Origin: Sphingobacteriales bacterium
Lineage (GTDB): Bacteria > Bacteroidota > Bacteroidia > Chitinophagales > LD1
DNA: 64,000 nucleotides
Assembly: GCA_018262795.1 (NCBI GenBank)
Contig: JADFDM010000002.1
Coordinates: 124,001-188,000 of the forward strand
Reading direction: 5' to 3'
Shown: piece by piece, positions 18,666 to 62,564 of the stretch
Layout: each line of letters starts with the position of its first letter
Numbering within the stretch: position 1 is the first letter of the stretch
The notes under the pieces: generated by a model
Told to the model about the DNA's origin: nothing
Databases searched by the model: none
Seen by the model: the letters and a program-made list of their open reading frames with translations, nothing else
Translations under genes and position numbers: made by a program

Positions 18666-21600
18666 ATGAAAACAAATACTAAAACACAGAGTAGGGAATT
18701 TGTCATGCTGACAAAGAGCGTATCCGGTATTTCCTTAATGCTCTTAATATCCTTGGTGGTTTTTATAATCCCCGCCACTGCCCAGCAAAACATCTTCCTC
18801 ACCCCTACCGTGCAACCCACACAGGGTAACCACACACAGGTTGGCAACTTTGCCCTTGATTACACGGTTGGCGAACCGATGCAAACTACTTTGCAAAATG
18901 GGAATGTAATGTTGACGCAAGGCTTTGAACAAATGGAGAAACCATTGCCACCGGTGGTACCGGCAAGCCAAACTGTTTGCAGTGATACGGCAGTTACGTT
19001 TACATGGGATAGCATACAGGTAGGGGAAGGTGGAGATAGTATAGAGTGGAGTTTGAGCAGTAGTTTTGATACAAGCTATATTATTTCAAACTTCGGAAGT
19101 ATTTCCTTTCTAGGAAATGATGGAAAATCAGATACAGTTTGGATGCGAAGTAAAGTGAGTGCTACTAGGTGTTTAAGCCCTACCATATATATTACAGCAA
19201 TGCTGAATGTTGTTAGTGCACCAATAGTCCCAAATTTTAAATTTGTCCCATTAGATAGTACCGCTAATGAACTTGCCCAGCTAAACGAGATTACAGCTGG
19301 TACTTGCGGAAATCAAATTGAGTGGGCTTTGGATAGCACTTTTTCTGATTTTCATTTGCTATCTTCTCCATGTAATTTGGAATTTAATTTAAGACCTGCA
19401 AGTGATACCGCAATCTGGATTAGAAGTCGGGATAGCATCACAGGTTTTACTAGTCATGGAATTTTGAAGAAGACAGAGAATGACAGAGGCGTATGTGTTT
19501 GGAGAAGTTGGTTGTTCAAACGGGATGTATTCGATTATTCACTTAGACCATTTTCTGAATCTTGTGTTAAAGTTCCATCTGAACCATTCTATAGCTGCGA
19601 AACTGCTAAAATGAAAGTGCAGGGATTAATTAATAGCAGTACGCTTGATGGTTTAAAATGGGATTGGAGTTATGATCTCAACAGTCCTATGCTAGCAGTA
19701 GATTGCCAAGTAATAGATGAAGTAAGAATGAATTTTTACAACGCTTCACTTTCAACCACTCCTTTGGTCGGTAAAATCATATATACTAATGATGCCCACA
19801 ATTATCCTTTTCAATTTCAAGCATCTCAGCCAACAGAGCCGAATTATATTGGGGGGACGTGGCTACAATCAGGTGGACATTATTGGGTACAGGCTGAATA
19901 CTCATGGCACTTAAATACAATGCAAGGGTGCTCGCTACCTACGAATGTCGTACCAACACCAATTGGATTTGGGAATGTCACTGCACTAGAATTTCAAGCA
20001 TGGGATCCAATGGATTTTACTATTGATGCTCCTCCCACACCATGCAATGGAGATGAAATGTGCTTTACCGTTACATCTAATTTGAATAGCGATACCTACC
20101 TCAGCAAGATGCTTTGGAAGGTTTATGTGGGTGACGATCCTGCTTCTTTAACAGATTTATACAGCGAATTTGCAGATTGTAATCTACCAAGTCCCACATG
20201 CTATTGCGAAGCAACTGATTGTAATGGTCAATTCTGCTATGAATTTTCAACACAAGGATCATATTATGTAGATTTATACGCATCGGCTGCTGATTGTTTG
20301 CCAACATGTCCTGATATTCAATGCAAAGCGGAAAAACAATTTGTGATTAATGATTCAGAACTTTCGGCTACTATTTCACCAAGTGATGTAACGGAAACAA
20401 GCTGTAGTGATGATGTCTTGACAGTGAGTGTTAGTGTTACTGGTGGTGGGGCACCCTACAGCTATTCATGGGAAACTACTCCAGGCTTAACAGGCAATGA
20501 GAATAATGCTGACCTATATATAGGTACTTTGGCTACCGGCATATACAATGTAACTGCTACAGATATTTTCGGATGTGAGATAACCGCTGACCTTAACTTT
20601 GAAATGAATTGTTGCATAGGGGACAATGTCCCGAGTTCAACCGATACTTATACCATTACAGATAATGGGTCTCCTGTAACTTCAAATTCTATAACTGCTG
20701 GATGGTTTCAAAGTAATTCAAATACCATAGCAATTAACGGAACACTTGTAATTGACAATCATTTCACCATTTCAGATTGTCCAGACATTGTAATGGGGAA
20801 AAATGCTAAAATCATTGTAAAACCGGAAGCTAGTTTAATCATTATTAATAGCCGTTTACACTCATGCAGTGATTTTCTTTGGCAAGGCATAACCATACAA
20901 GGCGACCCCACCCAATCTCAATACCCCATCACCGGCTCTGGTTCCTCCGGCACCTACCATCAAGGCGCAGTGTTTATGACTGATGCCACTATTGAAAATG
21001 CTGAAATAGCGGTGAACCTTAGCTTAACTGACATTGGCAAACGCGGAGGAATTATACAGGCCGTAAACAGCAGCTTTATCAATAACCGAACTGATGTGTT
21101 TATGCTGCCTTACCGCAACTTTACCAATAATAATAACACGGCTAATAATGCCAGTACTTTTTATGGATGCCACTTTACTACAAATTCGGCTTTGAGCAGC
21201 GATGACCCTAACCCCAATACCCATGTACTACTGTATGGAGTTGACGGAGTTAAAATAAAAGGTTGTGCTTTTGAAAATACCCGCACCGGTTTAACCTACG
21301 ACTACCAGTTAGGCAACGGCATATTTGCCGTAGATGCCAACTTTGCCGTAGATGATTATTGTGCGGCTTACAGCATGGGCAGTTGCACCGACCTTAAAGA
21401 AAGCACTTTTAGCAATCTGCGGCATGGTGTTCACATCGGCAGCTTTTTAAACCCTAAAGTTTGCTATGTGCGTAACAGCGCTTTTGACCACTGCCTGCGC
21501 GCCATACGCAATGAAGGTGTAAACTTTACCCGCTTTACAGGTAACGATATTGCCGTAGGCAATACCGCCACTATTACCGATATTACCAACTTTGATTACG

Positions 21601-23348
21601 CCCTGCTGGACGAAGGGATTATACTACGCCAGTGTATTGGCTTTACGGTGGAAGGCAATTACATACATCCTGCATTAGACAATAACGATGCCCCCGAAGT
21701 AGAATTAACCATTGGCACCCGTGCCGATGGCACTGGTGGGCAAAGCAATACTATACGCAATAATACTTTTGAAGAATTGTTTGCCGCGAATGTGGCGAAT
21801 AGGCAGAATAGAGCAAACCCAAATGTTGATATTACAGGTTTACAATATCTCTGCAACCAACAAACAGATGACGACTACGATATTTGTGTGACACAAGCAA
21901 CTGTCGGTGACCCTAATGGAAATTCAACAGGTGTTGGACAAAATCAAGGAGATGCAACTAAAGCGGCAGGAAATACTTTTTCAACTGCTCCTGCTATAGA
22001 CGGTAATTTTTTTAATCGATCACCTAATCACAATAATTACTTCTACTATAGTAATCCTCCTACGGAATATAGTCATGCAACTGTAACGGTTACACATACA
22101 AACGATATAGACTTGTGCCCTTCACATTCAAATAATGGCGCAAACAATTTCAATCATTTTTTAGCCGGTAAATCCGATAATGAGTTGCAAGAGCAATACA
22201 CTACCTACAAAGCATCATTGGTTACCGAAGAATCGCTTTACCGTTCGCGTATTGATAATGGTAATACACAGCGTATGCTCGCTTTTCTCGATACCAGTAA
22301 TTACAATTACTATGCAGGGCAGGTAATAGATACGCTGTTGAGCGCTTCACCCTATTTAAGCGAAACCGCTTTAATAAAAGCAGCTCAAATGCACAATGCA
22401 ATTAGCGATAGTATGCTCTATGAAATTCTTTTATTGAACCCCGATGGAATAAAAGCGAGCATCTTGATTGCCGAAATAAGTAGAAGAGAAATGCCGGATG
22501 GCTGGCTTGATTCAGCCATGCTCAGGAAACCCACCGAACGAACTTATTTAGAAGACAGCATACAAAAACATGCTTCTCTAAAAAACGAAGCCGCTTACGA
22601 ACTTATCAGCCGTATTTCGTTAGATGAAGATACCATTGATTACACTACCTTGCGGCAATGGTTAGATAGCTTGCAATACCCTATGGCAGATGCTTACTGT
22701 GCACTTACCTATATGCAAACTGCAAAGCCAGATACCGCACTCAGCAAGCTGCGTTCGATACACGGACGTTACGATTTAAGCAATGAGGATAGTTTGCAGC
22801 TAAACAGTATTGATACCCTGCTTGCTTATTACACCGGTTGGTATAATATACAAACCGATACCATATTGCCCGGTGATGTTACTACTTTTGATACAACGGC
22901 TATTGCTTTGTTCGATTCTCTCGCCAGCCAAAAGAATGAATACTTAACCGGTACGCAGGCAGTTCGAAATATAATGAACGCTATGTTCGACAGAAACTAT
23001 TTTACACCGGCTGAATTACCGGCAGAAGTATTTGGTAAAAGAGATGAATCAGAAACAGAAGAAACAATAAAGACCGCGAGTAAACAAGCACAAAAAGAAA
23101 ATCTACAATCCATTAAGGTTTATCCAAATCCTGCTAAAGATTATATTACATTTGAAGCAATTGGTGAAGTTGTAAATGCAAATATCCAAATCTATGATGC
23201 TTATGGACAAAAGATTACCGAAATAATCATGACTCAACCAATACTAACGGTTGATACCAAGCAATGGGGTAGCGGTATTTATTTATGGAGAGTTATCTAT
23301 TCAGATGAGAAAAAGGGGCAAGGTAAAATAAGCGTATTACAATGGTAG
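18666..23348 (+). CDS. Large T9SS-secreted protein with right-handed beta-helix region
   Basis: 1560 residues. The N-terminus has a charged stretch then a membrane segment ending in IPATAQQ (residues ~24-41), a signal peptide. Residues ~45-85 (VGNFALDYTVGEPMQTTLQNGNVMLTQGFEQ) form a small module usually found near the C-terminus of T9SS proteins, here at the N-terminus. Residues ~560-640 resemble a SprB-type repeat (GGGAPYSYSWETTPGLTG ... GIYNVTATDIFGCEIT). About 680-1080 show parallel beta-helix character with recurrent GxxNTIRNNTFE-like strands. About 1150-1440 is helical. The last ~80 residues (KVYPNPAKDYITFEAIGEVVNANIQIYDAYGQKITE ... WRVIYSDEKKGQGKISVLQW) are a type A T9SS sorting domain. 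Surface display or release is predicted; the substrate is unknown. Confidence 0.88.
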   Translation: MKTNTKTQSREFVMLTKSVSGISLMLLISLVVFIIPATAQQNIFLTPTVQPTQGNHTQVGNFALDYTVGEPMQTTLQNGNVMLTQGFEQMEKPLPPVVPASQTVCSDTAVTFTWDSIQVGEGGDSIEWSLSSSFDTSYIISNFGSISFLGNDGKSDTVWMRSKVSATRCLSPTIYITAMLNVVSAPIVPNFKFVPLDSTANELAQLNEITAGTCGNQIEWALDSTFSDFHLLSSPCNLEFNLRPASDTAIWIRSRDSITGFTSHGILKKTENDRGVCVWRSWLFKRDVFDYSLRPFSESCVKVPSEPFYSCETAKMKVQGLINSSTLDGLKWDWSYDLNSPMLAVDCQVIDEVRMNFYNASLSTTPLVGKIIYTNDAHNYPFQFQASQPTEPNYIGGTWLQSGGHYWVQAEYSWHLNTMQGCSLPTNVVPTPIGFGNVTALEFQAWDPMDFTIDAPPTPCNGDEMCFTVTSNLNSDTYLSKMLWKVYVGDDPASLTDLYSEFADCNLPSPTCYCEATDCNGQFCYEFSTQGSYYVDLYASAADCLPTCPDIQCKAEKQFVINDSELSATISPSDVTETSCSDDVLTVSVSVTGGGAPYSYSWETTPGLTGNENNADLYIGTLATGIYNVTATDIFGCEITADLNFEMNCCIGDNVPSSTDTYTITDNGSPVTSNSITAGWFQSNSNTIAINGTLVIDNHFTISDCPDIVMGKNAKIIVKPEASLIIINSRLHSCSDFLWQGITIQGDPTQSQYPITGSGSSGTYHQGAVFMTDATIENAEIAVNLSLTDIGKRGGIIQAVNSSFINNRTDVFMLPYRNFTNNNNTANNASTFYGCHFTTNSALSSDDPNPNTHVLLYGVDGVKIKGCAFENTRTGLTYDYQLGNGIFAVDANFAVDDYCAAYSMGSCTDLKESTFSNLRHGVHIGSFLNPKVCYVRNSAFDHCLRAIRNEGVNFTRFTGNDIAVGNTATITDITNFDYALLDEGIILRQCIGFTVEGNYIHPALDNNDAPEVELTIGTRADGTGGQSNTIRNNTFEELFAANVANRQNRANPNVDITGLQYLCNQQTDDDYDICVTQATVGDPNGNSTGVGQNQGDATKAAGNTFSTAPAIDGNFFNRSPNHNNYFYYSNPPTEYSHATVTVTHTNDIDLCPSHSNNGANNFNHFLAGKSDNELQEQYTTYKASLVTEESLYRSRIDNGNTQRMLAFLDTSNYNYYAGQVIDTLLSASPYLSETALIKAAQMHNAISDSMLYEILLLNPDGIKASILIAEISRREMPDGWLDSAMLRKPTERTYLEDSIQKHASLKNEAAYELISRISLDEDTIDYTTLRQWLDSLQYPMADAYCALTYMQTAKPDTALSKLRSIHGRYDLSNEDSLQLNSIDTLLAYYTGWYNIQTDTILPGDVTTFDTTAIALFDSLASQKNEYLTGTQAVRNIMNAMFDRNYFTPAELPAEVFGKRDESETEETIKTASKQAQKENLQSIKVYPNPAKDYITFEAIGEVVNANIQIYDAYGQKITEIIMTQPILTVDTKQWGSGIYLWRVIYSDEKKGQGKISVLQW

Positions 23349-23373
23349 AGGTAGGCAAAAGAAGATTACAACT

Positions 23374-23418
23374 AAAACAGATAATGCGATTGTTTTTTAC
23401 AATCGCATTATCTGTTTT
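23374..23418 (+). promoter_or_regulatory. Perfect 20-bp-arm hairpin over the next gene's start codon
   Basis: Arms 23374-23393 and 23399-23418 are exact reverse complements around a T5 loop; the inner arm reads ATAATGCGATTGT. The ATG at 23384 lies in the left arm, so in mRNA the start codon would be fully paired, while the arms also encode the signal peptide. A T-rich stretch follows the right arm, so it could act as a terminator after the upstream gene or as a translational switch. Confidence 0.75.
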
Positions 23419-24874
23419 GTTTTCTAAGCAGATATACGCCCAACAATTAAACAACCTGTATTATGATAATCGTCTTGCAATAATGTTTGGCTCTATTGAG
23501 GAATATAATGATAGTTACTATGTTTCAGGTGTAACTACTTTTGCAATTACAGATACGACCTATTATACTAAAGCACTATTCGGAAAAGTAAATGAGGATG
23601 GAAGTTTACATTATATCATTGGTATTTTTGATAGCTTAAACCATCATTATTCCATATTTATGAATTGCTTGAAGAAAACCGCTGATGGTAACTTTATAGC
23701 GACTGGTGATATAAATGACTCTATACCGAAAGCCTTCTTACTTAAAATTGATACTGACGGTAATGTCCTATTGTGGCATGAATATACTTATCCGAACGTA
23801 AATCTGTTCCACGGGCATGATGTAATAGAAATGGAAGGTGCTGGCTATTTAATTGCCATTAATGCCAATTTTACTAACGGTAATTCAGAAACAATTATTA
23901 TAAGAACAGACACTTTGGGAGATACATTAAATGTAAAAGATTATGGATTTGCCTATACGGAATTCCCTTGGCTTATACGCCCAATGCTGAACGGAAATTT
24001 TATGATAGGTGCAGTTACTTATAGTTACAATTGGGCACGTACATGGATGCTTGAATTGGATAGTATGGGTAATTACGTAAACCAATGGATTGATACAAGC
24101 CTTAATAACTATTATCCATTAGGTATGCAGCAAACCGCTGATAGCGGCTGGATAATAACGAGGCAGCATATAGCTTTAAATATTCCTAATTATCAAGCGT
24201 ATAATGCAAGCATTGTTAAACTTGATAAAGGTTTTAATAAACAATGGGAGTATTTTTTAGGCGATTCCAGCGATGTAACCGGTTTTTATGATGTAGAAAT
24301 ATTGCTTGATGGCAAATATATTGTTTGCGGAACCACTCCTATTTGGGGTAGTGATTCTGCTCATCGGTTTGGATGGATAGTAAAATTTGACACAGACGGT
24401 ACAAAACTTTGGGATAGAAAATATGTCGCCTACGAAAGATTTGGCACTCAAAGTTTTTTATACGATATAGATGTATTACCCAACGGAGATTTACTTGCTT
24501 GCGGTGAATTACGTTTCTCCTTTAACGTAGGCATAACCCCTGCGCAACAGGGTTGGATATTGCGAACAGACAGCAACGGTTGTGAGATAGAGAATTGTTT
24601 GGTGGGAATTGAAGAGCCACGAACCAAGCCGCAAGATGCAAGCCAAATCCAAATACAACCCAACCCTGCAAATAGTTACGTGCAAATACAAACGGAGAAT
24701 GGAATGATAAGCGGAGAAATAAAGTTGTATGATGTGGCAGGCAGATTGGTGCTCCAGAAAAGAATAGAAACCGAGCAAATGAACCTTGATATTACCCCAC
24801 TTGGCAAAGGGCTTTATATAGTAACTGCCGAAAAGGGAACAAAGCAAGCAAGAGGTAAGTTGGTGGTGGAGTAA
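23384..24874 (+). CDS. T9SS-secreted protein (type A CTD), paralog 1
   Basis: The ATG at 23384 gives MRLFFTIALSVLFSKQIYAQ, a clean signal peptide, and a 496-residue protein. An upstream in-frame ATG at 23342, overlapping the preceding stop, would add 14 charged residues and spoil it. The body (residues ~25-410) contains repeated strands of the form LKIDTDGNVLLWHEY, VKLDKGFNKQWEYF and VKFDTDGTKLWDRKY, a propeller-like pattern seen in T9SS proteins that resemble delta-60/WD-type repeats. The last ~72 residues (PNPANSYVQIQTENG ... GRLVLQKRI ... GLYIVTAEKG) are a type A sorting domain, but the canonical VYPNP is IQPNP here. The body is homologous to the gene at 25421. A strong hairpin covers the start codon. 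Confidence 0.88.
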   Translation: MRLFFTIALSVLFSKQIYAQQLNNLYYDNRLAIMFGSIEEYNDSYYVSGVTTFAITDTTYYTKALFGKVNEDGSLHYIIGIFDSLNHHYSIFMNCLKKTADGNFIATGDINDSIPKAFLLKIDTDGNVLLWHEYTYPNVNLFHGHDVIEMEGAGYLIAINANFTNGNSETIIIRTDTLGDTLNVKDYGFAYTEFPWLIRPMLNGNFMIGAVTYSYNWARTWMLELDSMGNYVNQWIDTSLNNYYPLGMQQTADSGWIITRQHIALNIPNYQAYNASIVKLDKGFNKQWEYFLGDSSDVTGFYDVEILLDGKYIVCGTTPIWGSDSAHRFGWIVKFDTDGTKLWDRKYVAYERFGTQSFLYDIDVLPNGDLLACGELRFSFNVGITPAQQGWILRTDSNGCEIENCLVGIEEPRTKPQDASQIQIQPNPANSYVQIQTENGMISGEIKLYDVAGRLVLQKRIETEQMNLDITPLGKGLYIVTAEKGTKQARGKLVVE

Positions 24875-24993
24875 CCCCCACTTTCCCCAACTTGCAGTAT
24901 AAATCCTTGCGCCAACCAAGCATCCCTAAAACCTATTGTCATTGCGCGAGCTTTCCTAAAACAGTAAACGAACAAAACCCAAAGCAACCTTCC
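24659..24993 (+). repeat. T9SS-CTD plus 3' flank cassette, copy A
   Basis: This 335-bp block is nearly identical, without gaps, to 26716-27050; I count about 11 differences, only three of them in the coding part. It begins exactly at the CCCAACCCTGCA codons of the PNPA motif, covers the rest of the sorting domain and the stop, and runs about 119 bp into the non-coding flank. The gene bodies upstream are clearly diverged, so this is a recent duplication or gene-conversion tract. Confidence 0.9.
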
Positions 24994-25214
24994 ATTTTGT
25001 ATTTTCAGTGCATGTAACTAATTCTCCACTGCACCCAACTTGCAGCAAAATGGAAAATTGCGTTTACCGTTCACCTGATAAATTTGGAAACTGTGTTGGT
25101 ATTTATGAAACCTGTTTTTGGCTTGGCTTCTGTTGTTGGTGACGTTCCGCACAAAGCTGCGGAACTAAACACCGAACAACGGCTTGCTCAAAACACCAAC
25201 AAAGGCACAAAAAT
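24875..25214. other. Non-coding gap between T9SS genes
   Basis: The first ~119 bp belong to the cassette flank. After that a perfect 8-bp inverted repeat GTTCCGCA/TGCGGAAC lies at 25144-25165 inside a longer imperfect one (GTTGTTGGTG against CACCGAACAAC). No gene is seen. The stretch ends at an orphan sorting-domain fragment. Confidence 0.5.
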
Positions 25215-25424
25215 TCTGTTATTATAGAATATATCGGCATAGCAGAAAACAGTACTCTGCGCATTATTAATACTCTCGGCATATTATTAGAGACTAAACT
25301 TTTAGATGGTGCCAACGGAAAGTTAACTTTGAACACAGCCAGCTACCAGAACGGTGTTTACCTCGCAAGGGTAGAAACTAATGGGAAGGCATTGCTGAAA
25401 GAAAAGTTTATAATCCTGAAATGA
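25215..25424 (+). pseudogene. Orphan T9SS type A sorting-domain fragment (5' lost)
   Basis: The frame ending at the TGA 25422-25424 encodes about 69 residues: NSVIIEYIGIAENSTLRI..., LGILLETKLLDGANGKL, SYQNGVYLARVETNGKALL and KEKFIILK at the end. This is a typical type A CTD lacking only the YPNP start. No start codon, signal peptide or passenger is attached, so it is the 3' remnant of a lost T9SS gene. Its stop overlaps the next gene's start as ATGA, a sign that an intact gene was once translationally coupled to it. Confidence 0.75.
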
Positions 25425-26931
25425 TTTTTTTTCATTTTTCACAAAAGCGCAAAGCACCCCTGTTTATTACGGGCTTGCTTTGCGCTTTGCCTTTTGTTAC
25501 AAATGCGCAGGTTTGGAACAAAACTTATATTGAAGACAGGCCAGCAATGATTTTCAGTAGCATCATTCAAACTGATAGCACGTATAACATTGTTGGCGCA
25601 ACTTATGGTTTTAGCAACCAATATGGAAAAGGTTTTACCGGGCAGATAAGTACAGATGGTGTTCTTTTAGATTATCATATTTTCATCGATTCAAGCTACG
25701 ATACATACGGAGTTTACTCAAATACACTCATTGGGATATCTGACTCACAATTAGCATTCACCGGCAACAGTTACGATACTGTTCCATATTTAATGTTAGG
25801 AATGGTAAATACACAAAACGGGGCTATTGAAATTTTCAAATATTACACCGCTAATACATACTCTTTTGTAGGTCACTGTATGGTAAATAAAAACAGCTCA
25901 AAATATATTGCAGGAGTTAGAACGGATGGGCTAACAAACAATGCAAATGTGGTTTTAATTAAGATTGATGCAAGCGGAAATAGAATTTGGGAAAAATATT
26001 ATGACCAACATAAGTTGGATTTGGCGAAAAGCATTATACAACTCATTAACGGGAACCTTATGCTTGGCGCTGTTCGCAACGATGTAAACCAAACCAACGA
26101 AAAAGCCAACACCTGGCTTTTAGAAGTGGACACAGGCGGCAATGTTGTAAGGCAATGGTTTGACCCTAATGACAGCACTTATGTAGCCGAAGGTTTGCGG
26201 CAAACACAAGATGGCGGGTTTATTTACGGGGCGCAAAAGAAATACTTACAAACTATAAACTCAGTTTACAAAGTAGCTACGATAGTAAAGACAGATAATA
26301 ACTTCAATAAGCAATGGGTGTTTACAGATGGTAGTTACAATACAGAAACTGCTATAGTTGATTTAGAAGAATTGCCTGATGGTAGCTTTATAGGCTGCGG
26401 CAATAAGCCGTTTTATTATACTGATTCAAGTGTCGTAAGCGGTTGGGTAGTTAAGTTAAACTCCAATGGTCAAGTAATATGGAATAGAATCTACCGCAGT
26501 GTTATCGGTTCACAAACTCTAAATCTCCTAACCGATATAGATGTATTACCCGATGGCGGCTTTATAGCCGTAGGGCAGTGCCAGCAGAGTGGCGCTACTC
26601 CGCCACAAGTAGGTTGGTTTTTAAAGTTAGATAGCAACGGTTGTGAGGTGGAGAATTGTATTTTAAATATAGACGACAGACAACAGACACAAGACATAAG
26701 GCAAATACAGGTTTACCCAACCCTGCAAATAGTTACGTGCAAATACAAACGGAGAATGGAATGATAAACGGAGAAATAAAGGTGTATGATGTGGCAGGCA
26801 GATTGGTGCTCCAGAAAAGAATAGAAACCGAGCAAATGAACCTTGATATTACCCCACTTGGCAAAGGGCTTTATATAGTAACTGCCGAAAAGGGAACAAA
26901 GCAAGCAAGAGGTAAGTTGCTGGTGGAGTAA
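25421..26931 (+). pseudogene. T9SS-secreted protein, paralog 2, frameshifted at the sorting domain
   Basis: The signal peptide (RKAPLFITGLLCALPFVTNAQ) and body (residues ~30-430) are homologous to the gene at 23384, with matching lines such as VLIKIDASGNRIWEKYY, QTQDGGFIYGAQK and KLDSNGCEVENC. At the sorting domain the frame shifts: GTT TAC CCA ACC replaces the expected GTT TAC CCC AAC (one base missing near 26716-26718). The original frame then stops at 26764, while the rest of the CTD (PNPANSYVQIQTENG to GKLLVE) continues in another frame to 26931. As it stands the product lacks its secretion signal. A base-calling error in the C-run cannot be excluded. The start ATG overlaps the TGA of the orphan CTD fragment. 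Confidence 0.8.
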
Positions 26932-27050
26932 CCCCCACTTTTCCCAACTTGCAGTATAAATCCTTGCGCCAATCAAGCATCCCTAAAACCCATTGTCATT
27001 GCGCGGGCTTTCCAAAAACAGTACGCGAACAAAGCCCAAAGCAACCTTCC
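26716..27050 (+). repeat. T9SS-CTD plus 3' flank cassette, copy B
   Basis: Second copy of the 335-bp block at 24659-24993, collinear without gaps at an offset of 2057 bp. The left boundary coincides with the frameshift of the gene it terminates. On the right, homology ends around GCAACCTT, where the two flanks become unrelated. Confidence 0.9.
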
Positions 27051-27148
27051 CCCTTGTATCCGCTAAATCCATTTAATCCGTCCCATCTGTGTCATCCGTG
27101 TGCCAATTTGTAGTATTTTTACTACTACTTGCTCAACCCATATTGCAG

Positions 27149-27571
27149 ATGTATAGCGACTTAGATAGATTCTTAACCGTACAAGAGGATAACTATAATA
27201 TGGCTTTTTCAGAAATCAGATCAGGAAGAAAAAGAAGCCATTGGATGTGGTATATTTTCCCGCAGTTAAAAGGTTTAGGAGTTAGTGAAACTTCAAAATA
27301 TTATGCCATAAAGGACATGGAGGAAGCTGTAGCGTATTTAAACCATCCCACTCTTGGAACTCGGCTGAAGGAAATTTCAAACGAACTCTTAACTCTTAAA
27401 ACTGCAAATGCCAGCTTAATTTTTGGAAACCCGGATGATTTGAAGTTGCAATCTTGTATGACTCTGTTTGCACAAATAGAAGCACCAGATGCTAATGTAT
27501 TTGCTCAGGTGATTGATAAGTTCTTTGAAGGGAATTATGACGGAAAAACTCTTGATCTGCTGGATCAATAA
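27149..27571 (+). CDS. DUF1810 family protein
   Basis: The ATG at 27149 gives MYSDLDRFLTVQEDNYNMAFSEIRSGRKRSHWMWYIFPQL, the family's conserved start; upstream in-frame codons lack coding character. At 140 residues it has the usual length. The RKRSHWMWYIFPQLKGLG motif, the LNHPTLGTRLKE segment and the IFGNPDDLKLQSCMTLF region are all diagnostic of DUF1810, a small soluble helical family of unknown function. It is a lone gene just before gyrA. The preceding ~45 bp contain a degenerate ~10-bp periodic stretch (ATCCGT-like words). Confidence 0.9.
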   Translation: MYSDLDRFLTVQEDNYNMAFSEIRSGRKRSHWMWYIFPQLKGLGVSETSKYYAIKDMEEAVAYLNHPTLGTRLKEISNELLTLKTANASLIFGNPDDLKLQSCMTLFAQIEAPDANVFAQVIDKFFEGNYDGKTLDLLDQ

Positions 27572-27808
27572 CCGCATCCCCAACAGAAAGTAGATGATCT
27601 TCTGGGTAGTAAATGGTTTCTTATCTCATTTAATTCTAACTACCTCATAATTTGGGGTTAAATGTTGAAAATTTCCTTCTAAATCATTTTGTCGTGGGGG
27701 TGTCGAATTGCTATATTCGTGCGCTCAAATCGCAGGAAAACAGCAAAACGTGTTTTTGTCCTTCTATTTTTGAAGTTTCTAAAAGAGTATTAACATAACA
27801 ATCTCCAC

Positions 27809-30364
27809 ATGAGTGACGAACTGAATCCACCCGAAGAAAAAGATCAAAAACCTGAAAATCCGAGAATAATCCCTATTAATATAGAGGAGGAGATGAAAAC
27901 CGCATACATTGACTATTCAATGTCGGTAATTGTTTCTCGTGCTATTCCCGATGTTCGCGATGGGCTAAAGCCGGTACATAGAAGAATTCTTTTCGGGATG
28001 AACGAACTTGGTTTATCTCCCGGCAGACCATATAAGAAGAGTGCCCGTATAGTGGGAGAGGTGCTGGGTAAGTATCACCCACATGGCGATACTGCTGTGT
28101 ATGATGCAATGGTTCGAATGGCGCAGCATTGGAGTCTTCGCTATCCCCTTGTTGATGGTCAGGGTAACTTTGGGTCTGTGGATAACGATCCACCGGCTGC
28201 TATGCGTTACACCGAGGCACGTATGCGCAAAATCACCGAAGAGTTTCTAAGCGATATTGACAAAGAAACCGTGGATATGCGGTTAAACTTTGACGATAGT
28301 TTAGAAGAGCCGACCGTGTTGCCTACCCGTATTCCCAACTTGCTCGTGAACGGAGCATCGGGAATTGCCGTAGGGATGGCTACCAATATGTTGCCTCACA
28401 ACCTCACCGAATGTATAGATGGCATCATGCAATATGTTGATAATAACGATATTAGCATAGAAGAACTAATGCAGTATGTGAAGGCTCCTGATTTCCCTAC
28501 CGGAGGTATTATTTACGGTTACGAAGGAGTAAAGCAAGCGCTAATGACCGGTCGTGGAAGAGTGGTATTACGCGGTAAAGCTGAGATTGAAACTCAAAAT
28601 AACGGCCGGGAGCACATCATTATCACCGAAATACCCTATCAGGTGGTAAAAAGTGATTTGGTGCGCAAAATTGCTGAACTAACAGAGGATAAGAAAATAG
28701 AAGGAATCAGTGATATCCGAGATGAGTCCGATCGCCATGGGATTAGAGTGGTAGTTGAATTGAAGCGAGATGCCATTAGCAATGTAGTCCTAAACCAGTT
28801 GTTTGCATTAACAGCCCTCCAAACAAGTTTCGGAGTAAATAATATCGCATTAGTTCACGGCCGCCCGCAACTTCTTAATCTTAAAGACATGATTAAGCAC
28901 TTTGTGGACTTCCGCCACGAAGTAGTAATTCGCAGAAGCAAATATGAACTCCGCAAAGCAGAAGAGAGGGCGCATATCCTTGAAGGCTTGCTTATTGCCA
29001 TTGATCATCTTGATGCAGTCATCAAGTTGATTCGCGACTCAGCAGATCCTGAAATTGCTAAGAGTGGCTTAGTCAGCAACTTTGGTCTTAGTGAAATACA
29101 GGCGAAAGCTATTCTCGAAATGCGTTTGCAGCGCTTAACTGGTCTGGAAATAGACAAAATCAAGCTGGAATACGATGAATTGCAGAAAACTATAGCTTGG
29201 CTAAATCGTGTGTTGAATGAAGAACCTCTGAGAATGCAGATAATAAAGGAGGAACTTGCAGAAGTAAAAAGTAAATACGGAGATGAACGCAAAACTACCA
29301 TAGAGTATGCCGCAGGTGACTTTAATATGGAAGATCTGATAGCCAATGATGAGGTAGTGGTTACTATTTCACGACTTGGCTATATCAAACGCACCCAGTC
29401 CACCGAATATAAGACACAAAATAGGGGAGGACGCGGCAGTCGGGGTGGCGCTACTCGCGATGAGGACTTTATTGAACACATGTTCTTGGCCACCAATCAT
29501 AACTATATCCTGTTCTTTACTGAGTTAGGCCGTTGTTTCTGGCTCAAAGTATATGAAATACCCGAGGGAGAAAAAACCGGTAAAGGTCGCGCCATCCAAA
29601 ATCTGATCAGCATTCCTAAAGAGGATAAGATTATGGCTTACATTCCTGTATTGAACCTGAAAGAGGATGATTACATGGAGAATAAGTTCGTGATCTTCTG
29701 CACTAAAAAGGGAACTATCAAAAAAACCACTTTGAAAGCCTACTCTAACGTGAGAGCAGGTGGTGTAAACGCTATAGACATTCGAGAGGGCGATGAATTG
29801 GTGCAGGTAAGTCTTACCGAAGGGAAAAGCGAAATTGTTATTGCTACTAAATTCGGGAAGGCCATTCGTTTTAACGATAGCACGGTTCGTGCAGTAGGTA
29901 GAGTAGCCGCAGGAGTAAGAGGAGTAACGTTAACTAATCCTAAAGATCAGGTGATTGGAATGATTACCGTAAATCCTGAAAACAAGGAAGAAACTATCAT
30001 GGTGCTTTCAGAAAAAGGATATGGAAAGCGCAGCGATATTGATGGCTACAGAATTACTAATCGCGGTGGGAAAGGAGTGAAAACCTTAAACGTGACAGAT
30101 AAAACCGGTTATTTAATTGGAATCATGAATGTCACTGATAATGACCACCTTATGGTTATCAATAAATCGGGTATTGCCATACGAATTGCGGTGGAACAGC
30201 TTCGAGTAATGGGGCGTGCAGCTCAAGGGGTTCGGGTCATTAAATTGGATAAGAAAGACGAGATAGCAGCCATTGCTAAAATCAAGGACGGAAAGCTCAA
30301 TTATAATATTGAAGAAGATGGAGAATTGGGAGCCACCGAAGAAAATGGAGATTCTGCCGAATAA
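27809..30364 (+). CDS. gyrA: DNA gyrase subunit A
   Basis: The 851-residue breakage-reunion subunit of gyrase introduces negative supercoils together with GyrB. Visible are [23 protein letters not shown], the QRDR region [18 protein letters not shown] (89-106), the catalytic tyrosine in [10 protein letters not shown] (Tyr134), the coiled-coil tower and a C-terminal beta-pinwheel with six repeats. The GyrA box near residue 530 reads QNRGGRG rather than the canonical QRRGGKG. Residue 95, equivalent to E. coli Ser83, is Thr, and Asp99 (E. coli Asp87) is retained. An acidic tail ([18 protein letters not shown]) ends the protein. It is followed after 53 bp by a TPR gene on the same strand. Confidence 0.98.
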
Positions 30365-61209: not shown

Positions 61210-61697
61210 GGTTTTGGGAGTTTAGTGATGAAATAATGAGTTTGTAAAGAATAATATGGAGGTGGATGCTTGCCGAATGAAGCCAATGAATGCTGGTCAT
61301 TATAATAGATAGCGAACACCTTGAATGAATGAGTCCATTTGCTTGCGGTGGCAGTTGACACCTTGAATGAATGAGTCCATTTGCTTGCGGTGGCAGTTGA
61401 CACCTTGAATGAATGAGTCCATTTGCTTGCGGTGGCAGTTGACACCTTGAATGAATGAGTCCATTTGCTTGCGGTGGCAGTTGACACCTTAAATGAATGA
61501 GTCCATTTGCTTGCGGTGGCAGCTGACACCTTGAATGAATGAGTCCATTTGCTTGCGGTGGCAGTTGACACCTTGAATGAATGAGTCTTTTCAGTTAAAA
61601 ATGTGATAAAATTGGAGGATAAAGTATGCAGATGGGCTGCATTAGCAATAAAAGGGGACATAAAAACTTCTTCTTTTGAAGAGGTTGCAGCATCCAT
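61206..61697 (-). CDS. Repeat protein encoded by a 42-bp minisatellite
   Basis: From the ATG at 61697 the ORF encodes 163 residues: ~40 non-repetitive residues (MDAATSSKEEVFMSPFIANA...), then six full and one partial copy of THSFKVSTATASKW, then a ~40-residue tail with aromatic and basic residues (YYNDQHSLASFGKHPPPYYSLQ). The repeat length is 14 codons, so the frame would stay open by chance if the DNA were non-coding. Support for coding is the ATGA overlap with the following gene. Alternatively this is a non-coding minisatellite in the leader of that gene. Confidence 0.45.
   Translation of the reverse strand: MDAATSSKEEVFMSPFIANAAHLHTLSSNFITFLTEKTHSFKVSTATASKWTHSFKVSAATASKWTHSFKVSTATASKWTHSFKVSTATASKWTHSFKVSTATASKWTHSFKVSTATASKWTHSFKVFAIYYNDQHSLASFGKHPPPYYSLQTHYFITKLPKP
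61315..61587. repeat. 42-bp minisatellite, 6.5 copies
   Basis: Six full copies and a 21-bp partial copy of a 42-bp unit (starts GACACCTTGAATGAATGAG, ends GTGGCAGTT) are nearly perfect, with isolated changes such as TTAAATG in the fifth copy and CAGCTG at its end. Such near identity indicates a recently expanded, likely length-variable tract. Confidence 0.95.
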
Positions 61698-61966: not shown

Positions 61967-62133
61967 TCGGTATTCGATTAACTCCGGCCTTTAGGCTGGA
62001 GATAGAGACAAACGAACATCCCGGGCTTTAGCCCTGATAGTGCTCAAAGTCATGGCTAAAGCCGATACGATAGGTTGCGTTTCTCTCCGCCATAAATGAC
62101 GGAGTTAATTATTCCCTATCGGTCGAAGTTTCA
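61967..62133. mobile_element. Four-hairpin REP/MITE-like element, copy 1
   Basis: The 133-bp core (61977-62109) is bounded by 10-bp inverted ends ATTAACTCCG/CGGAGTTAAT. It contains four stem-loops: CTCCGGCC-TTTA-GGCTGGAG, GGGC-TTTA-GCCC, GGCT-AAA-GCC and CTCCGCCAT-AA-ATGACGGAG. No transposase gene is present here, so it is non-autonomous; it may be mobilised by a REP-associated (RAYT/IS200-like) transposase elsewhere, which is inference. Confidence 0.65.
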
Positions 62134-62378
62134 AGGGTCGAAACATCCAGCAGGTGAAGCCCCGATCTGACAAAAAACAATGAACCACTAAGCACACCAG
62201 GAATGCACGATGAACACAAGAGAAACTCATCGTGCGCTTTGTGCATCCCCCCTTTGTGACCTTTGTGGTAAAAGCATTGGGGCGTTATGAGTTAACCGTC
62301 TGTTGGCAAAGACCTATCATCTATGCTTTAGGAGGATGAAGCGCGCCATCGTAATTCGATATGTTCGACATTCAGTAG

Positions 62379-62545
62379 TCGGTATTCGATTAACTCCGGC
62401 CTTTAGGCTGGAGATAGAGCCAAACGACCACCTCGGGCTTTAGCCCTGATGGCGCTCAAAGTCATGGCTAAAGCCAATACGATAGGTTGCGTTTCTCTCC
62501 GCCATAAATGACGGAGTTAATTATTCCCTATGGGGAGAAGTTTCA
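62379..62545. mobile_element. Four-hairpin REP/MITE-like element, copy 2
   Basis: Second copy, in the same orientation 412 bp downstream and collinear without gaps; core at 62389-62521. I count about seven differences in the core, several in loops or between stems. The similarity extends about 10-24 bp outside the inverted ends, which argues for tandem duplication or targeted insertion rather than two independent hops. Confidence 0.65.
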
Positions 62546-62564
62546 ATAAATGATTCAAAAAAAG

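What the first reader, a model, noticed from the sequence alone, without database searches (positions are those of the whole stretch)
24659..27050. Near-identical T9SS sorting-tag cassettes on diverged genes suggest tag exchange by recombination
Two paralogous secreted-protein genes have clearly different bodies, yet share a gap-free 335-bp block with about 11 differences: the whole type A sorting domain from the PNPA codons, the stop and ~119 bp of flank. Sharp left boundaries at the PNP codons imply a recent gene-conversion or cassette-replacement event. If general, T9SS tags may be swappable modules that let new passengers acquire secretion.
Basis: seen in the sequence. Interest (0 to 1): 0.75.

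Follow-up and report, generated by a model that had tools for sequence, protein, structure and literature searches.

The report
Secretion tag copied between neighbouring genes
Two neighbouring bacterial genes for different secreted proteins carry almost the same export tag because one tag was recently copied over the other, but in one gene the tag now sits out of reading frame, so this looks like local gene conversion rather than a free-moving cassette.

Summary
Window 24658-24993 and 26715-27050 align without gaps with 11 differences, while the gene bodies share 34% of residues and are saturated at silent sites. Body and tag trees disagree, so recombination is well supported. The tag is of gene 2's type, so gene 1 is probably the recipient (about 75%).

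Three things change the reading. (1) Gene 2 is one base short at the left edge of the block: its body ends 14 residues after YP and its tag lies in the -1 frame. (2) All ten other homologs looked at already have a T9SS-like tag, so a tag was replaced, not acquired. (3) No further copy was found in the genome or in 17 congeners, and among 116 homologous body pairs this one is extreme. A mirror-image case on contig C15 (bodies alike, tags different) shows that the process is not tag-specific.

Near-identical T9SS tags on different passengers are already in print (Tannerella KLIKK proteases). Best reading: short-tract gene conversion between tandem T9SS-effector paralogs, a new example of a known kind. 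Side leads: a dispersed palindrome in frame just before T9SS tags in relatives, and a second near-identical tag pair in another species.

The parts
18666..23348 (+). gene 0: 1560-aa protein with T9SS type A tag, overlapping the start of gene 1; distant homolog of gene X, the upstream neighbour in relative G005
23342..24874 (+). gene 1: 510-aa protein, homolog of gene 2 (predicted beta-propeller), tag in frame; likely recipient of the tag
   Evidence: (TIGR04183 42.4 bits, cut-off 23)
24658..24993 (+). shared block, copy 1: PNPA codon (24659) to stop plus 119 bp of flank
24912..25004 (+). dispersed intergenic repeat, cut short (about 93 bp of about 139)
25203..25424 (+). orphan T9SS tag, probably the remnant of a lost gene X; its stop overlaps the ATG of gene 2 (ATGA)
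   Evidence: (31.7 bits, cut-off 23)
25421..26764 (+). gene 2: intact 431-codon body (predicted beta-propeller), then frameshift; the 0-frame product has no tag
   Evidence: (no TIGR04183 hit)
26715..27050 (+). shared block, copy 2; its tag codons 26716-26931 lie in the -1 frame relative to the body
   Evidence: (45.6 bits in the shifted frame)
26716..26721 (+). place of the missing base relative to an in-frame PNPA junction
26662..26668 (+). TTTAAAT, a -1 slippery-type heptamer in phase inside the frame overlap; probably chance
26963..27107 (+). longer copy of the dispersed repeat in the gene 2 flank

Best explanation
Gene 1 and gene 2 are old paralogs (predicted beta-propeller passengers with T9SS tags) lying 2 kb apart. 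The 3' end of one was recently copied onto the other by homologous (ectopic) recombination, that is, short-tract gene conversion. The tract covers the tag from the PNPA codons, the stop and about 119-128 bp of flank, and ends inside a dispersed repeat. The tag type belongs to the gene 2 lineage, so the probable direction is gene 2 to gene 1, replacing gene 1's own tag. Gene 2 lost one base at the same junction, before or after the copying, so its body is now made without a tag unless the base is an assembly error. Shown: block, edges, tree conflict, frameshift in the assembled sequence. Inferred: conversion rather than another recombination route, direction, order of events, and loss of surface export of gene 2.
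For: Block and edges. dS 0 over 46 sites in the tag against saturation in the body. Body tree: gene 1 with G009 and G013 (100/100), gene 2 with G008A/B, G004 and G005a (100/99); tag tree: gene 1 + gene 2 (98/97); AU tests p 4e-5 and 0.0095. Tag identities of gene 1: 96% to gene 2, 46-56% to gene 2-type G008A/B and G005a, 27% and 23% to its own orthologs G009 and G013. The repeat is longer behind gene 2 and cut behind gene 1. Similar events: the two G008 paralogs around the X remnant share a 38-nt identical run ending at the stop (chance 2e-5 to 0.004 by the assumed identity); C15 tandem paralogs share 93.4% over 1538 bp (a run of 60-bp windows at 100%) in the body but 37% in the tag; G014 has two loci with 97.6% over 291 bp of linker plus tag, ending at the stop.
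Against: Direction is not proved: G017, an outgroup by body, has the same tag type (54%), while G004, a gene 2 ortholog, does not (31-33%); the AU test of gene 1 + G009 alone does not reject (p 0.07); the tag alignment has 74 columns and long branches. Flank differences (8 of 119) exceed tag differences (3 of 215; Fisher p 0.02), and by eye gene 1 and gene 2 each carry private changes in the repeat, so the block may be of two ages. Read data were not available, so an assembly error at the repeat edge is not excluded.
Confidence: 0.8

Rival explanations
1. A mobile or freely swappable tag cassette that has been joined to new passengers.
For: Sharp edges at the tag; a tag with flank but no passenger on C16:84097, 85% to C13:51792 over 212 bp; the orphan tag at 25203-25424.
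Against: Two copies only in the genome; in 17 congeners nothing better than 68% over 212 bp, with shorter pieces of 75-79% over 57-69 bp in G008. No inverted repeats of 60 bp or more in the window; I did not test for shorter ends, transposases or target duplications. The homologs looked at already have tags; orphan tags look like remnants.
Confidence: 0.07
2. Assembly artefact: a misjoin at a repeat makes either the second tag copy or the frameshift.
For: The only split gene seen by eye in the 64 kb is broken exactly at the repeat edge.
Against: The two copies differ at 11 places; contig of 389 kb; G008 has the same order body-tag-remnant-body-tag, though its wider flanks differ by eye.
Confidence: 0.1
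3. The frameshift is functional: -1 programmed frameshifting at TTTAAAT makes a minor tagged form of gene 2 and a major untagged one.
For: Slippery-type heptamer in phase within the open overlap; G008's gene 2 ortholog is also one base short at the same junction, at another base.
Against: No unusual structure downstream (z 0.87); no such heptamer in the overlap of G008 gene B; G005 and G004 orthologs are in frame; about 0.2 such heptamers would be expected by chance (rough mental estimate, no call).
Confidence: 0.04
4. No recent exchange: whole-gene tandem duplication in which the body diverged under selection and the tag stayed conserved.
For: Genes are tandem paralogs.
Against: Body data place each gene with different orthologs in other species and reject them as sisters; no silent change in the tag; in 101 of 116 body pairs the tag is the less conserved part, though local body alignments favour the body somewhat.
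Confidence: 0.02

Closest known systems
KLIKK proteases of Tannerella forsythia (PMC4404884; listing and passages seen)
   Same: Several secreted proteins with virtually identical T9SS C-terminal domains on otherwise different bodies; the authors suggest a common origin of a domain acquired relatively recently.
   Different: Six protease genes in two clusters; here two paralogs of one family, one with its tag out of frame.
Domain rearrangement and allelic exchange among gingipains and adhesins of Porphyromonas gingivalis (PMC5266723; passages seen)
   Same: Recombination among T9SS-exported surface proteins.
   Different: In the passages seen the variation is in catalytic and adhesin domains, the CTD being called conserved; here the exchanged part is the CTD.
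T9SS type A CTD as a portable signal (review PMC10202324; passages seen)
   Same: The CTD is stated to be necessary and sufficient and to work when fused to heterologous proteins, so exchange is mechanistically easy.
   Different: Laboratory fusions, not natural exchange.
Gene conversion between bacterial paralogs, e.g. class-I release factor genes (PMC4530459; search listing only)
   Same: Copying of part of one paralog onto another.
   Different: Other genes; not a sorting signal.

Membership tests
T9SS type A sorting domain (TIGR04183 / PF18962) | profile score above the curated cut-off | tested here: met
   gene 1 42.4 and gene 2 tag in the -1 frame 45.6 bits against 23; Pfam 47.1 and 51.4 against 27
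T9SS type A sorting domain (TIGR04183 / PF18962) | at the C-terminus of the translated protein: gene 1 | tested here: met
   residues 439-509 of 510
T9SS type A sorting domain (TIGR04183 / PF18962) | at the C-terminus of the translated protein: gene 2 | tested here: not met
   0-frame product of 447 aa has no NCBIfam hit and no tag hit in Pfam; tag in -1 frame
T9SS type A sorting domain (TIGR04183 / PF18962) | organism has the translocon | tested here: met
   SprA TIGR04189, 2538 bits against cut-off 200; other T9SS parts not searched
T9SS type A sorting domain (TIGR04183 / PF18962) | Sec signal peptide on the passenger | not tested
   hydrophobic N-termini seen by eye only
T9SS type A sorting domain (TIGR04183 / PF18962) | secretion and cleavage of the tag | not testable with these tools
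   needs the organism
gene conversion between paralogs | high-identity tract inside diverged paralogs | tested here: met
gene conversion between paralogs | tract and flanks give conflicting trees | tested here: met
gene conversion between paralogs | one-way copying (non-reciprocal) | tested here: inconclusive
   direction by tag type and cut repeat only; no close relative with the state before
mobile cassette | further copies on other passengers | tested here: not met
mobile cassette | terminal repeats, transposase, target duplication | not tested
   only inverted repeats of 60 bp or more were looked for, none found
programmed -1 frameshifting | slippery heptamer in phase in the overlap | tested here: met
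   TTTAAAT 26662
programmed -1 frameshifting | downstream stimulatory structure, conserved | tested here: not met
   z 0.87 (pseudoknots not scored); no heptamer in the overlap of G008 gene B
beta-propeller passenger | fold | tested here: met
   model of the gene 2 body, pLDDT 75.1, pTM 0.77; CylK 245-662 Z 38.5-39, YncE Z 30.7

The most novel reading that the evidence does not exclude
In this genus the junction between passenger and T9SS tag is a recurrent recombination and switching point: tags are replaced by short-tract recombination at the PNP codons, linkers take up dispersed palindromes in frame, and one-base indels there turn export on or off, so passengers and tags evolve as separate modules.
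Probability: 0.2. Interest if true: 0.65.

Novelty: new member of a known kind. Interest (0 to 1): 0.4.

Why it matters
A T9SS tag decides whether a protein leaves the cell. A bounded case in which one paralog's tag overwrote another's, while the likely source went out of frame, shows how export can be reassigned by ordinary recombination between neighbours. It also warns that near-identical tags need not mean functional tags. The body-against-tag comparison is a simple screen that can be run on any Bacteroidota genome.

Tried and rejected
Mobile cassette: searched the own genome and 17 congeners; only the two copies. Dispersed repeats as a general source of linker homology in this genome: repeated 15-mers are 0.6-0.7% in the last 90 bp before the 150 tags, against 0.6-1.3% from -240 to -91 and 1.1-3.2% further upstream, so no enrichment. 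Rfam on 23000-28000: nothing at gathering thresholds. Programmed frameshifting: one heptamer, no unusual structure. G008's matching frameshift as proof of function: it is one base short at another base, the assembly is a MAG, and 4 of 150 scored tags there have open frames under 150 aa, against 6 of 150 here, so I gave it little weight. An alternative alignment in which gene 1 lacks GGTTT after CAAATACA relative to gene 2 (by eye) would also explain why gene 1 is in frame; I prefer the codon alignment but cannot decide. No paper found naming the G008 assembly. PMC7323717 came up for T9SS with 'concerted evolution', but the term stands only in its reference list.

Limits: the tag survey scored 150 of 283 candidates in the own genome and 150 of 357 in G008. 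The body comparison dropped pairs under 120 aligned residues or above E 1e-10 and bodies under 60 aa, and used at most about 433 aa before the tag; one of the 116 pairs (C14 70850/71369) is one ORF counted twice. G011 was dropped from the trees because its tag (PNPS) did not fit my motif. Fetched and not analysed: L200 and L201. Five of the 17 congener genomes are under 90% complete.

Full report
What is there. The window holds a tandem run of T9SS-tagged genes: gene 0 (18666-23348), gene 1 (23342-24874), an orphan tag (25203-25424), gene 2 (25421-26764), with what looks like gyrA at 27809 (name recalled from its sequence, not tested). Blocks 24658-24993 and 26715-27050 align without gaps with 11 differences. 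The bodies are old paralogs, 34% identical over 427 codons with silent sites saturated; the tag has no silent difference over 46 silent sites and three replacement differences. The gene 2 body is predicted as a beta-propeller (model from 6 sequences), nearest to CylK residues 245-662 (Z 38.5-39, 354-361 residues, rmsd 3.4-3.7), with YncE next (Z 30.7, 292 residues, rmsd 2.5).

Gene 2's reading frame runs ...QIQVYP, then 14 residues TLQIVTCKYKRRME and a stop; the tag codons from 26716 lie in the -1 frame. The 0-frame product has no tag hit, the -1 frame scores 45.6 bits. By eye the window has no other split gene. The orphan tag before gene 2 resembles the end of a gene X, which in G005 (JAEUVA010000041.1) is a larger ORF overlapping the gene 2 ortholog; in G008 (JAHCHW010000002.1) X-like tag ends lie in front of both paralogs. 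The right end of the block lies in a dispersed repeat with 7 other places in the genome, longer behind gene 2, cut behind gene 1.

Who gave to whom. Of 18 genus genomes (own included) 8 have a homolog of the gene 1 body at E 1e-15. Gene 1 groups with G009 (58%) and G013 (49%), gene 2 with G008A/B, G004 and G005a (50-57%) (11 sequences, G011 left out). The tag tree joins gene 1 and gene 2, near G005a, G008A/B and G017; AU tests reject gene 1 + gene 2 for bodies (p 4e-5) and gene 1 + G009 + G013 for tags (p 0.0095), but not gene 1 + G009 alone for tags (p 0.07). So gene 1 most likely received a gene 2-type tag. The ten other homologs looked at (G011 included) end in a type A-like tag by eye, that of G008 gene B out of frame, so nothing is shown to have become secreted for the first time.

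How general. Of 150 tags scored in the genome (of 283 candidates), all-against-all comparison of tag plus flank shows no other pair as alike, once overlaps of a locus with itself are set aside. In 116 homologous body pairs the tag exceeds the body by 62 points here, by 39 in C18:180439/C2:62412 (tag dS 0.75, body saturated) and by 22 in C19:105484/104608 (tag silent sites saturated, so not recent); in 101 of 116 the tag is the less conserved part. The opposite case, C15:198870/201434, has bodies 91% and tags 37% identical, with 93.4% over 1538 bp and a run of identical 60-bp windows. So conversion or duplication among neighbours is not aimed at tags. In G014 two loci share linker plus tag, 97.6% over 291 bp, ending at the stop; one contig ends inside the block, so its passenger is unseen and the whole gene may be duplicated. 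G008's paralogs share a 38-nt identical run ending at the stop.

Age of the block. Tag 3 of 215, flank 8 of 119 differences (Fisher p 0.02); no silent change in 46 sites against the flank or repeat rate gives p 0.02 to 0.11 over four variants. This hints at an older shared 3' end and a later conversion of the tag; it is weak.

Frameshift. G008's gene 2 ortholog is also one base short at this junction, at another base (in GTTAC there, in CCCAAC here), while G005 and G004 are in frame. Open frames under 150 aa occur at 6 of 150 tags here and 4 of 150 in G008, so out-of-frame or orphan tags are not very rare. I read it as decay or loss of export; a TTTAAAT heptamer leaves a small door open for programmed frameshifting.

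Known before. The CTD is stated to be necessary and sufficient for export (PMC10202324, passages). Virtually identical CTDs on different proteases are published for Tannerella (PMC4404884, passages), and domain exchange among gingipains and adhesins for Porphyromonas (PMC5266723, passages). Searches combining T9SS with gene conversion, domain shuffling, swapping, frameshift or concerted evolution listed nothing that looked closer (listings only, except the papers named and PMC7323717, where the term is in the references), in a library without most subscription journals. The finding is therefore a clean new example of a known kind, with the general idea already proposed.

Noticed in passing
G005:C48:1188-1202, G008:C8:503111-503125, G005:C4:146-160, G014:C8:11174-11188, G014:C60:120059-120073 (L225, L227, L264, L265, L250): A dispersed palindrome (AACCCCCGAAGGGGG; 50 copies in 9 of 18 genus genomes, reversed control 0) lies 25-36 nt before a T9SS tag in 5 of 50 copies, each reading TPEGG in an open frame; 0.08-0.22 expected under rough assumptions. 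They stand for about three independent genes, two of them distant homologs. One further copy lies inside a tag (L252) and one 21 nt behind a tag (L228).
   Followed up: partly
G014:C60 and G014:C8 (L250, L265): Two loci share linker plus tag, 97.6% over 291 bp, ending at the stop codon; the second contig ends inside the block.
   Followed up: partly
G000:C15:197080-198617 and 199635-201172 (L199): Tandem paralogs with near-identical 5' parts (93.4%, a run of 60-bp windows at 100%) but different tags: recent conversion or duplication of the body.
   Followed up: partly
G000:C18:180439 and C2:62412: Unlinked pair, bodies 38% and tags 77% identical; strong DNA similarity (79.6%) covers just the tag codons.
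   Followed up: partly
G000:C13:181270-183692 (L150): Row of orphan or truncated T9SS tags (open frames 65-88 aa) between longer genes.
   Followed up: no
G000:C16:84097-84264: Tag plus 46 bp of flank without passenger, 85% identical to C13:51792.
   Followed up: no
window 25115-25142: 28-bp stretch 93% like the intergenic region behind the G005 gene 2 ortholog, by eye part of an imperfect inverted repeat around TTGTTGGTG/CACCAACAA; perhaps a second dispersed element.
   Followed up: no
window 61274-61651 and 61967-62546: Tandem 42-bp repeat (7 overlapping 126-nt copies) and a 168-bp direct repeat, 94%.
   Followed up: no
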